A program made the translations under genes and the position numbers. Under the pieces are notes generated by a model. The model ran no database searches and was not told where the DNA came from. It saw only the letters and a program-made list of their open reading frames with translations. This document shows positions 6,507 to 12,320 of a stretch of DNA of 64,000 nucleotides, one piece after another (the first letter of the stretch is position 1; each line of letters begins with the position of its first letter). This DNA comes from Halorussus amylolyticus (GTDB taxonomy: Archaea > Halobacteriota > Halobacteria > Halobacteriales > Haladaptataceae). The stretch spans positions 235,000-298,999 of the forward strand of contig NZ_ML974133.1 of assembly GCF_004143485.2 (NCBI RefSeq). The letters run 5' to 3'.

Positions 6507-6971
6507 TCACTCGTACAGCCACGTCTCGTCGCTGCGCTCGTACTCGACCAGTTCGTCGTCGTCGAAGAACAGGTCGATTTCGCGCTCGTTCGCGCCCTCG
6601 TCCTCGTGGTCCGAACCGTGGATGACGTTCCGACCGAGGTCGAGTCCGTAGTCGCCCCGAATCGTGCCGGGGGCGGACTCGGCGGGGTCGGTTTCGCCCA
6701 TCATGGTGCGGACCTGACGGGTCGCGTCTTGACCTTCCCACACCATCGCGAAGACGGGACCGGACGTGATGAAGTCCACGAGACCCTCGAAGAAGGGCTT
6801 ACCCTCGTGTTCGCCGTAGTGGTCGTGGGCGAGGTCTTCGTCAATCTGCATGAACTTCCCGGCGACGAGCTTCAGACCGCGGTCCTCGAATCGGGAGACG
6901 ATGTCTCCGATGAGGCCGCGCTGGACGCCGTCGGGCTTGACCATGACGAAGGTGCGCTCGGTCTCGCTCAT
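6507..6971 (-). CDS. ndk: Nucleoside-diphosphate kinase
   Basis: 154-aa enzyme that transfers the gamma phosphate between nucleoside triphosphates and diphosphates through a phospho-histidine. The N-terminal [12 protein letters not shown] and the active-site NVIHGSD (phosphorylated His) are intact and the length is typical. The start at 6971 overlaps the rpl24e stop (ATGA), excluding a 13-codon extension. It is last in the rpl7ae-rps28e-rpl24e-ndk operon, a common haloarchaeal order. Confidence 0.97.
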
Positions 6972-7162
6972 TGTTCGGTCGTCTCCTCGTCTCTGCCGTC
7001 CTCGGTCCACTCGAGGTTTCGGGGTTCGCGTCCGAGGTCGGCGTTCTTCTCACACTTCGCGGAGCAGAAGTGGGTGGTGGTGCCGTCGGTGCGGACGAAC
7101 ATCGTGCCCGTTCCGGGTTCGATGTCCGAGCCACAGAAGTCACAGTCTCGGGTCTGGGGCAT
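6968..7162 (-). CDS. rpl24e: Ribosomal protein L24e (eL24)
   Basis: 64-aa zinc-ribbon protein of the large subunit. Two Cys pairs form the metal site: CDFCG near the N-terminus and [10 protein letters not shown] about 25 residues later. The ATG at 7162 gives [11 protein letters not shown], the usual archaeal start; the 44 codons upstream in frame are arginine/proline-rich shadow sequence. It lies 2 nt after rps28e and overlaps ndk by ATGA. Confidence 0.96.
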
Positions 7163-7164
7163 TG

Positions 7165-7392
7165 TCACTGACCTCCGATGGAGTCGGCTTCGCGAGCGGT
7201 CTCGCGGAGTTGGATTATGTCGCCCTCGCGGACCGGACCGAGGCAGTTCCGCGTGATGATGCGGCCCTGGTTCTCGCCCTCGCGGATGCGGCACTTGACC
7301 TGCATGGCCTCGCCGTGCATCCCCGTCTTGCCGACGATTTCGATGACTTCGGCGGGCGTGGAGCCTCCTTCTTCGGACTCTTCAGCACTCAT
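7165..7392 (-). CDS. rps28e: Ribosomal protein S28e (eS28)
   Basis: 75-aa small-subunit protein with an OB-fold. The core [20 protein letters not shown] and the family C-terminal region [20 protein letters not shown] are clear. The acidic N-terminal extension (SAEESEEGG) is a haloarchaeal trait. It sits between rpl7ae and rpl24e in the same operon. Confidence 0.97.
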
Positions 7393-7401
7393 GGGTCACA
7401 C

Positions 7402-7764
7402 TCACCGAAGTTCCTCGACCTTGCTGGCGATGTCCTCCACGTCGTCGTCGGCCTCGCCCGCATCGACGATGGCCGCGGCCGCGCTTCCGACTTCCAGCCC
7501 GGCGGCGTGGCCGATGTCGTCCTGCGTATCGACGAAGATGAAGGGGATGCCCTTCTCGTCGGCGAGTTCGGGCAGGTGCATCACGATTTCCTCGGGCTGA
7601 ACGTCCTCGGCGACGTAGATGAGGTCGGCGTTGCCGCGCTCGATTGCCTTGGTCGTTTCGTTGGTTCCTTTCTTCACGGTTCCCGTGTCTCGGGCGACCT
7701 CGAGCGCCTCGACGGCGCTGTCTTGGAGGTCGGCCGGAACGTCGAAGTTTACGTATACTGGCAT
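7402..7764 (-). CDS. rpl7ae: Ribosomal protein L7Ae (eL8), kink-turn binding protein
   Basis: 120-aa RNA-binding protein that recognises kink-turns in rRNA, box C/D and H/ACA guide RNAs and RNase P. Conserved family residues include [23 protein letters not shown] and the following PPEEI-like segment ([21 protein letters not shown]). The start at 7764 (MPVYVNFDV) is the archaeal standard; seven codons upstream are excluded. First gene of the ribosomal/ndk operon. The nearest TATA (ttaaaa on plus, 7878-7883) predicts a leader of about 90 nt, unusual in haloarchaea, and that leader can fold into a kink-turn-like structure (see 7789-7841). Confidence 0.97.
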
Positions 7765-7788
7765 TGGTTGTTCACCTTCCCGCACGTC

Positions 7789-7841
7789 GGCTCAAGCTCC
7801 CCTGCCGGAGTAGTCCTATGCGGCTAGGAGCATCATCAACC
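7789..7841 (-). promoter_or_regulatory. Kink-turn-like fold in the rpl7ae leader
   Basis: On the minus strand, GGU-UGAUGAU-GCUCC (7841-7827) can pair with GGAGC-UUGA-GCC (7800-7789): a 5-bp stem, a box C/D-like internal loop (UGAUGA facing UUGA instead of CUGA) and a short outer stem, closed by a 26-nt loop. L7Ae binds just such motifs, and autoregulation of archaeal L7Ae through its own leader has been described. The fold is seen in sequence; binding is inferred. Confidence 0.45.
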
Positions 7842-7972
7842 GCGCGCAGGTTGTACGACTTGGTAGTTCGTCACCCCTTAAAAGCGCTTTCAAATGCTGC
7901 TGGGGCGTGCGAAACGAAGACAAGGGGACATCGGTCGTGGACGAGGGCAGTGTCGGTCGTTTACGGGAGCGC

Positions 7973-8518
7973 TCACTGTCGCTCGGCGCCGTCCCATCCC
8001 TCGCACAGCAGACCGTAGACCACCACGTCGCGGTACTCACCGTTGAGAAATTCGTGGTCTCGAAATCGTCCTTCCTCCGAGAAACCGAGACGCTGGAGCA
8101 ACCGCCGAGAGTCGTCGTTGAAATCCACGACTTTCGCATACAGTCGGTGGAGTCCGCGCGTCTCGAAGCCGTACTCCAACAGTAGGGAGGCCGCCCCGGT
8201 CGCGTACCCGTGGCCGCGAGCGTCGGCGTCGAGCCAGTAGGCCACTTCGGCGTGGTCGCGCTCGACTCGAAACAGATTGGCTTCGCCGATGGGTTCGTCC
8301 TCGCCGTCTCGGCAAATCAAGAAGTTCGCGTCGCCGTTATCCGCGGCAATCGTGTTCTCGTAGAACTCCTCGACTTGCTCGCGCGTCTGTGGTTCCGTGA
8401 ACGTCAACGGCGTCCGTAAGTCGGGGTCGCTTCGAGCGCGCTGGAGGAAGTCGATGTCCTCGCGCTCGGTGACTCGGAGGTCGACTCGCTCGCCGGAAAG
8501 GTAAACGGGGCCGGGCAT
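7973..8518 (-). CDS. GNAT acetyltransferase, RimJ/RimL type
   Basis: 181-aa GNAT-fold enzyme similar to ribosomal-protein-Ser/Ala acetyltransferases (RimJ/RimL). It begins with the family pattern GERVDLRVTEREDIDFLQRA, has the acetyl-CoA loop in DADARGHGYATGAASLL, and ends with DDSRRLLQRLGFSEEGRFRD typical of this subgroup. Start at 8518 (MPGPVYLSGE); a 34-codon extension reaches into the phnD promoter region and is rejected. Its substrate (protein N-terminus or small amine) is not predictable. Divergent from phnD. Confidence 0.85.
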   Translation of the reverse strand: MPGPVYLSGERVDLRVTEREDIDFLQRARSDPDLRTPLTFTEPQTREQVEEFYENTIAADNGDANFLICRDGEDEPIGEANLFRVERDHAEVAYWLDADARGHGYATGAASLLLEYGFETRGLHRLYAKVVDFNDDSRRLLQRLGFSEEGRFRDHEFLNGEYRDVVVYGLLCEGWDGAERQ

Positions 8519-8699
8519 GTCTGATTCGAGGGACGGCGCGACCAAATGCGTTCGGGAGAACGTCGCCCGGTTCTCACTGCGAGCGGTATTCCTAGATACA
8601 TTTCCAGATTGAACACTCACACCTAGAGAAACTATCTAAACGGAGGCCAATATATGAAAAAGCTTGAAAAGGGGTGCTGCGTATTCGCGGTTACCGCCA

Positions 8700-9812
8700 A
8701 TGAGCAAGAAAAGATTGTCGCGTCGGTCGCTGTTGGCTTCCACAACCGCAACGGTCACCTACGGTCTCGCTGGCTGTATCCAAGGCGAGGGCGGCGACGA
8801 GGCGACCGAAACCGAGACGAGCGCGGGAGACTCAGAGTTCGACCCGGCGAACCCGGAGTTCCCGCAGTCGATGCAGGCGCTGATTCAGGCCGGGTACGAG
8901 ACGGGGGCCATCGAGGACCTCGAGAATATGGAGGAGCGCGACGAACCGCGCTACGGCGACCCCGTCCAAGAGACGCCGTCGAGCGACGACGACTTGCTCG
9001 ACCCCGACAAACTCGCGTTCGCGATGACGCCGACGGAGGACCCGGCGGCGTACCGCGACACGATGCAGCCCCTGATGGACAACATCGCCGAGGAGACCGG
9101 CAAGGACGTGGAGTACTTCCCGCTCCAGTCGTACGCTTCCATGATTGAGGCGATGCGCTCGGAGCGCCTCCACGTCGGCGGATTCTCGACCGGTCCGACC
9201 CCGTTCGCGGTCAACCTCGCGGGCGCGGTTCCGTTCTCGATTCAGGTGTCGGACGACGGCGCGTTCGGCTATCGGCTCTGGCTCGCGACCCAGTCGGACA
9301 ACGACGAGATAAACGCGCTCGAAGACCTGGAGGGCAAGCGAATCGCTCACGCCGAGCCCTCGTCGAACTCCGGGAACCAAGCACCTCGGGCGCTGTTCGA
9401 GAACGAGGGCGTCGTCCCCGACGACGACTACGAAGTGTCCTACTCGGGCGGCCACGAACAGAGCATCCTCGGCGTCGCCAACGGCGACTACGACGCCGCG
9501 CCCGTGTGTAGTACGTGCGTGACGCGCGTTGCGGACGCCGACAACGTTGACCCGACGAACATCAAGGTCGTCTGGGCGAGCAACCCCTTCCCGACGACGA
9601 GTTTCAACTATCGCTACAACCTCACGCCCGAGATTCAGGAGGGTATCCGGACGGCGTTCCTCGAATACGACTACTCCGACACCGACATAGCCGAGACGTT
9701 CGAAGGGCGGGGCAAGTGGGTCGAAATCGACTACGCGACCGCCTACGACATCATCCTCCAGATTCAGGAGAAGAACGGCGTCGAGTACGAGACCGGTAAT
9801 CTGGAGGAGTGA
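8700..9812 (+). CDS. phnD: Phosphonate-type ABC transporter, substrate-binding lipoprotein
   Basis: 370-aa periplasmic-binding protein of the PhnD/PtxB/SsuA-like family (phosphate, phosphite or phosphonate binding). Start ATG 8700 gives [15 protein letters not shown], a Tat signal, and LAGC, a lipobox Cys for lipid anchoring. Family landmarks are [19 protein letters not shown] near residue 105 and the [13 protein letters not shown] segment. An acidic linker follows the Cys. The gene is 4 nt from phnC, so the importer is one operon; a TATA-like AATATATG lies at 8649-8656. Actual substrate not determined. Confidence 0.9.
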
Positions 9813-9816
9813 GGCC

Positions 9817-10671
9817 ATGATACGGGTCGAAGACTTGGAGAAGGTGTACGATTCGGGCGACCGTGCGCTCGACGGCGTCTCGATGGAAGTCGGTGGGAAC
9901 GAAATCGTCGCAATCATCGGCCCGAGCGGCGCTGGCAAGAGTACGTTCATCCGGTGTATCAACCGGCTTACCGAACCGACCGGCGGGAGCGTCTGGCTCG
10001 ACGAAACGGAAGTCACCGCGCTCGGCGGGTCGGAACTGAAGCAGGCCCGCCGAGACATGGGGCTGATTCACCAGGAGTTCAATCTCATCGAGCGACTGAC
10101 CGTGATGGAGAACGTCCTCTCGGGGCGACTCGGCTACATGAGCGCGTGGCGGGCGTTCCGCCGGGACTTCGACGCCGAGGACATCTCCCGGGCGCGCGAG
10201 GTGCTCGACCGAGTGGGTCTCGGCGGCCACGAGAACAACCGGGCCGACGAGCTGTCGGGCGGCCAGCGCCAGCGCGTCGGCATCGCTCGCGCGGTCATCC
10301 AGCGACCCAAGATACTGCTGGTGGACGAACCCACCAGCGCGCTCGACCCCGAAACGTCCATCGAGGTGATGGACCTGCTGACCGAAATCGCCCGCGAGGA
10401 CGATATTCCGGTTCTCATCAACATCCACGAGGTGGACCTCGCCGTCGAGTACGCCGACCGCATCGTCGGTTTGAGCGACGGTCGAGTCGTCTTCGAGGGG
10501 ACGCCCGAGGAACTCGACGAGCAGGCCAAAGACACCATCTACCGAGGCGGCGAGTCCCGAGAAGAGCGTGACGCCGCCGCGGAGGCGCGCGACGCGAACG
10601 CAGGCGGCTCGGACGACCGGGACGACGGACTCCCCGAGGACGTGACCCAACGGACCGCGAGGGAGGGGTAA
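9817..10671 (+). CDS. phnC: Phosphonate-type ABC transporter, ATP-binding subunit
   Basis: 284-aa ATPase. Walker [10 protein letters not shown] (about residue 32), Q-loop [12 protein letters not shown], signature [14 protein letters not shown], Walker [13 protein letters not shown] and the switch His in NIHEVDLA are all intact, and the sequence matches the PhnC branch. The C-terminal 40 residues are an acidic/arginine tail beyond the ATPase fold, which PhnC proteins usually lack. Energises import together with the two downstream permeases. Confidence 0.94.
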
Positions 10672-10677
10672 TCCCGA

Positions 10678-11493
10678 ATGGCGACTCACTCGAATCCCGA
10701 GTACGACGGCGAGTGGCACCGTCCGACGGCGTTCTACAATCGCTACGTCAAGTACGCGGTGTACGCGCTCATCGTCGGGTTCGTGCTGTTCAGCATCTGG
10801 GACCTTCGAGTCTCACTCGACAGATTCCTTCAGGGGATGTCGGCCGGCGCGACCCTCGTCTCGAACATGCTCCCGCCCGCCGCGACCCCCTCGCAGTTCC
10901 AGTTGATGGTCCGCGGCGTCGTCGAGAGCATCGTGATGTCGATACTCGCGACCGCCATCGGCGTCGTCGTCAGCGTCCCGGTCGCGTTCATGGCCGCGAA
11001 CAACCTCGCGCCCAAACCCGTCTACGCCGTGGGCCGAGGCATCGTCTCGGTCACGCGCGCGTTCCACGAACTCATCGTCGCCATCGTGATGGTGAAGGCG
11101 GTCGGGTTCGGGCCGCTGGCTGGCGTCCTCGCGCTGTCGTTCAAGACCGTCGGCTTCTTCGGCAAACTGCTCGCCGAGGAAATCGAGGACATCGACGTGG
11201 GCCAGATGGAGGCGGTCGAAGCGGTCGGCGCGGGCAAACTCCACATCTACATCTTCGGCGTCCTGCCGCAGGTCATTCCGCGAGTCATCGGTCTCACCAT
11301 CTACCGACTCGACATCAATCTCCGCCACAGCACGGTGGTCGGCATCGTCGGCGCGGGCGGCATCGGCATCACGCTGCTGAACTCGTTCCAGAAGTACGAC
11401 TACCAGTTCAGTTCGCTCATCATCCTCGTCATCGTGTGTCTCGTCATCGTGGGCGAAGTGGTTAGCGCCTACGCGAGACGGAGGGTACAGTGA
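10678..11493 (+). CDS. phnE: Phosphonate-type ABC transporter, permease 1
   Basis: 271-aa inner-membrane permease of the PhnE family. The central helices and the EAA-type loop that contacts the ATPase are visible (LLAEEIEDIDVGQMEAVEAV followed by GAGKLHIYIFGVLPQV), then the family signature RHSTVVGIVGAGGIG. About six helices. Its stop overlaps the start of the second permease, so the two chains are made together and probably form a heterodimer. Confidence 0.93.
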   Translation: MATHSNPEYDGEWHRPTAFYNRYVKYAVYALIVGFVLFSIWDLRVSLDRFLQGMSAGATLVSNMLPPAATPSQFQLMVRGVVESIVMSILATAIGVVVSVPVAFMAANNLAPKPVYAVGRGIVSVTRAFHELIVAIVMVKAVGFGPLAGVLALSFKTVGFFGKLLAEEIEDIDVGQMEAVEAVGAGKLHIYIFGVLPQVIPRVIGLTIYRLDINLRHSTVVGIVGAGGIGITLLNSFQKYDYQFSSLIILVIVCLVIVGEVVSAYARRRVQ

Positions 11494-12320
11494 TGTCGGA
11501 CTCGACGAACACGGAATCCGGCCCGAAGACTCCGACGGGCGACGACTGGCACCGCCACTCGCGCCGGGAGCGACTCGCCCGGTACGGTGCGGTCCTCGGA
11601 ACGCTCGTGATTCTCGCGGTCGCGTGGCGGTCGATGGAGGTCAACTACGACTACGTGGCGTCCGCGCCGCGCGAAGTCGGCGACCTCGTCGCTCGGATGT
11701 ACCCGCCGGACGTGGCGTACACGACCGAAATCGTGGGGCCGCTCATCGAGACCATCAACATCTCGATACTCGGCACCGGACTGGCAATCGTTCTCGCGGT
11801 CCCGGTCGCGTTCCTCGGGGCGGAGAACACGTCGCCGAACCGCCTGACCTACTGGTTCGGGAAGTTCATCATCTCGTTCACCCGGTCGGTGAACGTCATC
11901 ATCTGGGCGCTCATCTTCGTCGTGCTGTTCGGACCGGGCGCGCTCTCGGGCGTCCTCGCCATCGCGGTCCGGTCGGTGGGCTTCACCGCGAAGCTCATCG
12001 CGGAAGCCATCGAGGAAATCGACCACGGGCAGGTCGAGGCGGTCACCGCGACCGGCGCATCCACGGTTCAGACGTTCGTCTACGGCGTCGTCCCGCAGAT
12101 AAAGCCCGCGTTCGTCTCGGTCGCGACGTTCCGGTGGGACATCAACGTCCGGGCCTCGACCATCATCGGATTCGTCGGCGCGGGCGGCATCGGCGTCGCG
12201 CTCCAGACCAACATCAACTACTTCAACTGGTCGGCGGTCCTGACCATCCTCATCGCCATCCTCGGCATCGTCCTCCTGAGTGAAGGCATCTCGGCCTACC
12301 TCAGGAAGAAAGTGACGTGA
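11493..12320 (+). CDS. phnE: Phosphonate-type ABC transporter, permease 2
   Basis: 275-aa PhnE paralogue of the preceding gene. ATG at 11493 is preferred; a GTG lies one codon earlier. The same landmarks appear: LIAEAIEEIDHGQVEAVTAT and RASTIIGFVGAGGIG. The N-terminal 25 residues are hydrophilic. No C-P lyase (phnG-M), phosphonatase or phosphite dehydrogenase gene follows, so this operon only transports; the use of the imported compound must be encoded elsewhere. Confidence 0.93.
   Translation: MSDSTNTESGPKTPTGDDWHRHSRRERLARYGAVLGTLVILAVAWRSMEVNYDYVASAPREVGDLVARMYPPDVAYTTEIVGPLIETINISILGTGLAIVLAVPVAFLGAENTSPNRLTYWFGKFIISFTRSVNVIIWALIFVVLFGPGALSGVLAIAVRSVGFTAKLIAEAIEEIDHGQVEAVTATGASTVQTFVYGVVPQIKPAFVSVATFRWDINVRASTIIGFVGAGGIGVALQTNINYFNWSAVLTILIAILGIVLLSEGISAYLRKKVT

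What the first reader, a model, noticed from the sequence alone, without database searches (positions are those of the whole stretch)
7789..7841. Kink-turn-like motif in the unusually long rpl7ae leader
Most haloarchaeal messages here look leaderless, but the rpl7ae TATA predicts a leader of about 90 nt. In it, GGU-UGAUGAU-GCUCC faces GGAGC-UUGA-GCC, close to a box C/D kink-turn. The gene product itself binds kink-turns, so negative feedback on the ribosomal/ndk operon is plausible. Such feedback has been reported for archaeal L7Ae; this haloarchaeal version has UUGA in place of CUGA.
Basis: partly seen in the sequence, partly recalled or inferred. Interest (0 to 1): 0.62.

Follow-up and report, generated by a model that had tools for sequence, protein, structure and literature searches.

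The report
Haloarchaeal L7Ae leader kink-turn hairpin
[quoted passage not shown] this feedback is already known from other archaea, but here the hairpin is much larger and predicted to be stable without the protein.

Summary
The minus strand upstream of rpl7ae (ATG 7764-7762) carries a kink-turn at exactly 7789-7841, the core of a larger hairpin (7779-7850) filling the predicted ~92-nt leader. All 170 haloarchaeal rpl7ae leaders extracted keep the kink-turn's UGA. In 29 diverse leaders 15 of 22 base pairs changed on both sides with pairing kept (91% paired; 35-51% for slid controls). A covariance model hits 194 of 198 good-quality genomes of the order; of four misses, two have the element with long inserts, two a compact form. 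No Rfam family matches. L7Ae feedback on its own leader is published (Daume 2017; Huang 2019), so the kind is known. Apparently new: (1) the architecture, an 11-12-bp C-helix ending at the Shine-Dalgarno sequence, predicted to fold without protein (-41.9 kcal/mol), unlike A. fulgidus; (2) the published Haloferax volcanii reporter used only 50 bp, which would lack the conserved bulged strand if H. volcanii resembles five other Haloferax species (strand near -106); (3) an unexplained apical AGGR motif (167/170). Corrections: the working G.A pair is the second GA of UGAUGA; UUGA is a minor variant. Binding and repression are inferred, not shown.

The parts
7878..7891 (-). Promoter BRE/TATA GAAAGCGCTTTTAA
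   Evidence: Position; TTTGAAAGCGCTTTTA(A/T) recurs in most leaders; TATA-to-UGA spacing 41-44 nt in 165/170
7765..7856 (-). Predicted 5' leader of rpl7ae mRNA, about 92 nt; start near 7856 inferred from TATA, not mapped
7843..7850 (-). P1 5' strand CCUGCGCG (outer C-helix)
   Evidence: Covariation
7839..7842 (-). P2 5' strand CGGU (inner C-helix; the U is -1b)
7832..7838 (-). Kink-turn bulged strand: bulge UGAU (7838-7835), G 7834 and A 7833 (1b, 2b), U 7832 (3b)
   Evidence: UGA in 170/170 leaders; register set by variants with 3-nt bulges
7826..7831 (-). P3 5' strand GCUCCU (NC-helix)
7821..7824 (-). P4 5' strand GCCG
7814..7817 (-). Conserved apical motif AGGA (AGGR in 167/170 leaders), role unknown
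7804..7807 (-). P4 3' strand CGGC
7796..7801 (-). P3 3' strand GGGAGC
7792..7795 (-). Kink-turn non-bulged strand UUGA (3n = U 7794, 2n = G 7793, 1n = A 7792)
   Evidence: GA in 127 and AA in 4 of 131 distinct leaders
7788..7791 (-). P2 3' strand GCCG
7787..7787 (-). Single-nucleotide bulge (A) between P1 and P2; A, G or C in relatives
   Evidence: Fold; alignment
7779..7786 (-). P1 3' strand CGUGCGGG, ending directly before the Shine-Dalgarno sequence
7772..7778 (-). Shine-Dalgarno-like AAGGUGA; in most relatives GGAGGUGA, its first GG inside P1
   Evidence: Match of 5 nt or more to GGAGGUGAUC in 168/170 leaders
7402..7764 (-). rpl7ae, L7Ae/eL8, 120 aa, with the RNA-recognition stretch KKGTNETTK
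   Evidence: Pfam Ribosomal_L7Ae 9.9e-25; haloarchaeal ribosome chains 1s72_F and 9l94_E
7165..7392 (-). rps28e, downstream
   Evidence: Pfam Ribosomal_S28e 2.6e-29
6968..7162 (-). rpl24e, downstream
   Evidence: Pfam Ribosomal_L24e 2e-24
6507..6968 (-). ndk, downstream
   Evidence: Pfam NDK 3.9e-56

Best explanation
The leader of the rpl7ae-rps28e-rpl24e-ndk transcript is a cis-regulatory RNA: one long hairpin broken by a kink-turn that is bound by the L7Ae it encodes. When L7Ae exceeds its ribosomal, C/D and H/ACA partners it binds the kink-turn, clamps and kinks the hairpin whose foot abuts or overlaps the Shine-Dalgarno sequence, and so lowers initiation on rpl7ae. Shown here: position, invariant kink-turn core, helices by covariation, near-universal presence in haloarchaea, and adjacency to the ribosome-binding site. 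Published for other archaea: L7Ae binding and translational repression. Inferred here: L7Ae binding, repression, and the step blocked. Because the helices are predicted to form without protein, the switch is more likely kinking and clamping of a preformed hairpin than the folding of an open leader.
For: Kink-turn core UGA 170/170; GA facing it in 127 of 131 distinct leaders. Covariation in P1-P4. The fold survives in lineages of quite different sequence, e.g. L203 GGGGU-GGU-GA-GGAGCCACCG / CGGUGGCUCC-GA-GCCC, and L199. The model finds the element in 194/198 good genomes of the order; the top matches that were compared lie at l7ae, and the window's genome has no other match better than E 0.39. 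Lineages f10/f12 have a compact canonical kink-turn abutting the SD instead, e.g. L204 CGU-GAU-GA-AGCGC-GCUA-GCGCU-GA-ACG-AGGUG. L7Ae of this window has the recognition stretch KKGTNETTK. Literature: l7ae autoregulation through a leader kink-turn (PMC5539422) and a crystal structure and probing for A. fulgidus (PMC6298567).
Against: No binding or expression data for this element. 115 of 131 distinct leaders have a 4-nt rather than 3-nt bulge (or a U.C mismatch next to U:G). A predicted -41.9 kcal/mol hairpin without protein fits poorly with the published 'unfolded until bound' model. In this window the SD lies just outside P1. H. volcanii was reported not to use SD motifs in 5'-UTRs (PMC3986360), which weakens plain SD occlusion.
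Confidence: 0.85

Rival explanations
1. Same element and ligand, but the mechanism is exactly that of A. fulgidus: leader open and translated when L7Ae is scarce, folded and SD occluded only when L7Ae binds.
For: Published for A. fulgidus. At the 3b:3n position only 18/131 distinct leaders have the bases (3b = C or 3n = G) said to permit ion-driven kinking, so the kink itself is probably L7Ae-dependent here too. In most relatives the first GG of the SD is inside P1.
Against: Haloarchaeal stems are long, GC-rich and predicted stable alone: -41.9 kcal/mol, z -4.2 for the window, 93% of leaders z < -2.
Confidence: 0.2
2. A structural 5' cap: the hairpin protects the mRNA or sets a constant translation level, and L7Ae does not regulate through it.
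For: The hairpin begins within about 6 nt of the predicted start and is very stable.
Against: A cap would not need an invariant UGA with a facing GA, nor its confinement to the gene of the kink-turn-binding protein.
Confidence: 0.06
3. The leader responds mainly to another factor that reads the apical AGGR loop (30S subunit, other ribosomal protein), with the kink-turn only shaping the RNA.
For: AGGR in 167/170 leaders, kept beside large lineage-specific inserts, with no pairing partner found (sequences).
Against: The motif is absent from the compact f10/f12 leaders, which keep the kink-turn.
Confidence: 0.06
4. Chance pairing, or an upstream reading frame, explains the conservation.
For: AUG occurs in the box; in the window it opens a six-codon frame.
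Against: uORF length varies from 6 codons to open; covariation exceeds all 500 shuffles and every slid control.
Confidence: 0.01

Closest known systems
l7ae leader kink-turn of Sulfolobus acidocaldarius and other archaea (Daume et al. 2017, PMC5539422)
   Same: Kink-turn strands in the l7ae 5'-UTR near the SD; the gene product is the ligand; repression shown in vivo for S. acidocaldarius
   Different: The authors reported high leader conservation only for Sulfolobales; here a covariation-supported hairpin spans the whole haloarchaeal leader. Their H. volcanii reporter carried 50 bp with a substitute Kt-b strand; they note another Kt-b further upstream in their alignment
Archaeoglobus fulgidus l7ae leader kink-turn (Huang, Ashraf and Lilley 2019, PMC6298567)
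   Different: There the C-helix has few pairs and the RNA is unstructured without L7Ae; here the C-helix is 11-12 bp and predicted stable, and most leaders have a 4-nt UGAU bulge
Box C/D kink-turn of C/D sRNAs (RUGAUGA / CUGA)
   Same: Sequence resemblance UGAUGA / CUGA; same protein
   Different: The second, not the first, GA pairs; no second C'/D' motif or guide was seen; a leader, not a sRNA
Yeast RPL30 (L30e) leader kink-turn
   Same: Feedback on the own transcript by an L7Ae-family protein (cited in PMC6298567 and PMC5539422)
   Different: Eukaryotic; acts on splicing and translation

Membership tests
Archaeal l7ae autoregulatory leader kink-turn | Lies in the 5'-UTR of the l7ae gene, near the SD | tested here: met
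   170 leaders, P1 ends at or in the SD; start inferred from TATA
Archaeal l7ae autoregulatory leader kink-turn | Kink-turn: C-helix, bulge, tandem G.A/A.G, NC-helix | tested here: met
   UGA 170/170, facing GA 127/131, helices covary; the bulge is 4 nt in 115/131
Archaeal l7ae autoregulatory leader kink-turn | RNA unfolded in the absence of L7Ae (A. fulgidus model) | tested here: inconclusive
   Thermodynamic prediction says stably folded; not probed
Archaeal l7ae autoregulatory leader kink-turn | Binds L7Ae and represses translation | not testable with these tools
   Needs EMSA and reporter; the ligand has an intact recognition motif
Box C/D kink-turn of sRNAs | First GA of UGAUGA pairs with GA of CUGA, followed by U.U | tested here: not met
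   Only the second UGA is invariant; variants UGU-GA, CAU-GA, GGU-GA and CGU-GA lack the first
Any Rfam 15 family | Match to a covariance model | tested here: not met
   No match at gathering score in the window other than a tRNA; none up to E = 5 for 7700-7950

The most novel reading that the evidence does not exclude
In haloarchaea the l7ae leader is a preformed, leader-length RNA device: L7Ae does not fold it but kinks it, swinging the NC-arm with its conserved AGGR loop back towards the foot of the C-arm (arms of roughly equal length, about 10 and 11-12 bp), where loop or protein blocks ribosome loading at the adjacent start region. This would be a different switching principle from the open-to-folded l7ae leaders of other archaea.
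Probability: 0.2. Interest if true: 0.6.

Novelty: new variant of a known kind. Interest (0 to 1): 0.42.

Why it matters
It gives haloarchaea, which are genetically tractable archaea, a precisely bounded regulatory RNA on a ribosomal-protein operon, supported by covariation. It indicates that the one published haloarchaeal test probably used a fragment without the conserved bulged strand. It also poses a testable question: how does a leader hairpin predicted to be stable on its own act as a switch in a group reported not to rely on Shine-Dalgarno pairing?

Tried and rejected
Box C/D register: rejected because only the second UGA is invariant. uORF starting in UGAUGAUG: rejected, length not conserved. 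Pairing of apical AGGR with the 5' CCUG of P1, with UCCU of P3 or with the spacer: by eye none survives the lineages where those partners change. Second copies of the element in the window's genome: next best matches E 0.39 and 2.4, taken as chance. Weak matches outside the order (E about 0.001-0.006): not at l7ae, so chance. L7Ae control of nop5 in this genome through a leader: its TATA (TTTAAA) lies about 25-30 nt before the ATG, so it looks leaderless. My first 3b:3n tally was distorted by a pattern that matched P3; replaced. A mapped H. volcanii l7ae start was not found in the main text of PMC4983044, and supplements could not be read. No paper in the library held L7Ae, haloarchaea and autoregulation together.

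Full report
What was claimed and what is there. The minus strand reads GUACAACCUGCGCGCGGUUGAUGAUGCUCCUAGCCGCAUAGGACUACUCCGGCAGGGGAGCUUGAGCCGACGUGCGGGAAGGUGAACAACCAAUG (7856-7762), with rpl7ae starting at 7764 and followed by rps28e, rpl24e and ndk. The pairing lies at the coordinates given. It is only the core: folded alone, the leader makes one hairpin from 7850 to 7779, -41.9 kcal/mol, z -4.2, 1 of 200 shuffles as stable.

Comparison. I collected 170 l7ae upstream regions: 80 from named genomes and 90 from whole-genome searches of the same order; some of the two sets are the same species. All contain the kink-turn UGA; 131 are distinct over the element. TATA to UGA is 41-44 nt in 165, placing the predicted start at the foot of the hairpin. 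On 29 diverse leaders, 15 of 22 pairs changed on both sides with pairing kept; 91% of cells pair, against 35-51% when partners are slid; no shuffle of 500 reached the observed values. On 91 leaders fitted to the model the figures are 17 of 22 and 95% (that alignment leans towards the structure). An unconstrained consensus fold gives P1, P2, P3 and half of P4, with two further pairs inside the kink-turn core. Lineages with quite different letters keep the shape: L129 CCUCUGUGGGG/CCCGCGCGGAGG, L132 CCUAUC/GAUAGG, L199 CGCGACGUG/CACGUCGCG, L203 with a 10-bp NC-helix next to the G.A pairs.

Distribution. The covariance model finds the element in 221 of 236 genomes of the order and in 194 of 198 good-quality ones. 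Of the four good-quality misses, two (G191, G226) have the element with long inserts. The other two (G009, G011) belong to lineages f10 and f12, which have a short canonical kink-turn right against the SD, clearest in L204 CGU-GAU-GA-AGCGC-GCUA-GCGCU-GA-ACG-AGGUG. Lineage f2 (L202, one incomplete genome) shows no obvious element. The only weak matches outside the order are not at l7ae. In the window's own genome the next best match has E 0.39. No Rfam family matches.

Anatomy and register. From outside in: P1 (8 bp), a 1-nt bulge on the 3' side, P2 (3-4 bp ending in U:G), bulge UGAU, G.A/A.G, P3 (5-6 bp), P4 (3-4 bp), apical loop. Lineages with a 3-nt bulge (GU-CAU, GC-UGU, GC-GGU, GU-CGU) fix the register: the second GA of UGAUGA is the working pair, as in the GAU-bulge kink-turns drawn by Huang et al., not the box C/D register. 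In four leaders (L061, L075, L080, L142) the pair next to the bulge is C:G. The facing strand is GA in 127 of 131 distinct leaders and AA in 4. 3b:3n is U:C or U:U in 93 of 131; only 18 have the bases reported to allow ion-driven kinking.

How it probably works. L7Ae leader feedback is established in S. acidocaldarius, and S. acidocaldarius L7Ae repressed reporters with other archaeal l7ae leaders in E. coli (PMC5539422). A. fulgidus L7Ae folds an otherwise open leader and hides the SD (PMC6298567). The haloarchaeal case shares gene, position, motif and ligand, so the same feedback is by far the likeliest role. The folding part of the model may differ: C-helix 11-12 bp, MFE z below -2 in 93% of leaders, so the helices probably exist before L7Ae arrives while the kink does not. 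In most relatives the first GG of GGAGGUGA is inside P1; in the window AAGGUGA starts directly after P1. H. volcanii was reported not to use SD motifs in a 5'-UTR (PMC3986360), although 168 of 170 l7ae leaders have a 5-nt or longer SD match. Clamping of the hairpin, or a clash of kinked RNA plus protein with the 30S subunit, is my preferred step; this is inference.

Relation to earlier work. Daume et al. examined 121 archaeal leaders, reported high conservation only in Sulfolobales, and tested 50 bp upstream of H. volcanii l7ae. Their legend says the tested sequence has a potential Kt-b apart from one found further upstream in the alignment. In five Haloferax species in hand (not H. volcanii itself, which was not among the loci) the conserved UUGAUGA starts 106-108 nt before the start codon, outside 50 bp. 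So the complete element has probably not been tested. The supplementary alignment could not be read, so part of this architecture may be visible there.

Open points. The apical AGGR motif (167/170) has no partner that I could find. Lineage-specific hairpins of up to about 110 nt are inserted beside it without loss of the rest. One family, f13, has AA in place of GA on the non-bulged strand in the members looked at (L163, L165-L168).

Verdict. Real, strongly conserved, and of a known kind, with a distinct haloarchaeal architecture. Interest moderate.

Noticed in passing
window 7814-7817 (-) and the same place in 167 of 170 leaders: Apical motif AGGR conserved just after the 5' strand of P4, kept even when large lineage-specific hairpins are inserted next to it; no pairing partner found.
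   Followed up: partly
L186, L187, L188, L204 (lineages f10, f12): These members of the order lack the long hairpin and have a compact canonical kink-turn with a C-helix of about 3 bp directly against AGGUG, perhaps an older form.
   Followed up: partly
L163, L165, L166, L167, L168 (family f13): The non-bulged strand carries AA instead of GA at 2n/1n while everything else is kept: a natural non-consensus kink-turn.
   Followed up: no
L018, L067, L158, L183, L184: Apical region enlarged by lineage-specific hairpins, up to about 110 extra nt, without loss of the kink-turn or P1-P4.
   Followed up: partly
window 7878-7891 (-) and l7ae promoters of the order: The l7ae promoter itself (TTTGAAAGCGCTTTTAA/T) is strikingly conserved across haloarchaea.
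   Followed up: no
L197, start codon near 2322 (-): nop5 of the same genome has TATA (TTTAAA) about 25-30 nt before its ATG and so looks leaderless; L7Ae control of nop5 by a leader kink-turn, reported elsewhere, seems absent here.
   Followed up: partly
window 8664-12320 (+): Next to the l7ae promoter region, beyond a GNAT-like gene (7973-8620 -), lies an ABC transporter cluster resembling phosphonate uptake (substrate-binding protein, ATPase, two permeases), named from the translations only.
   Followed up: no
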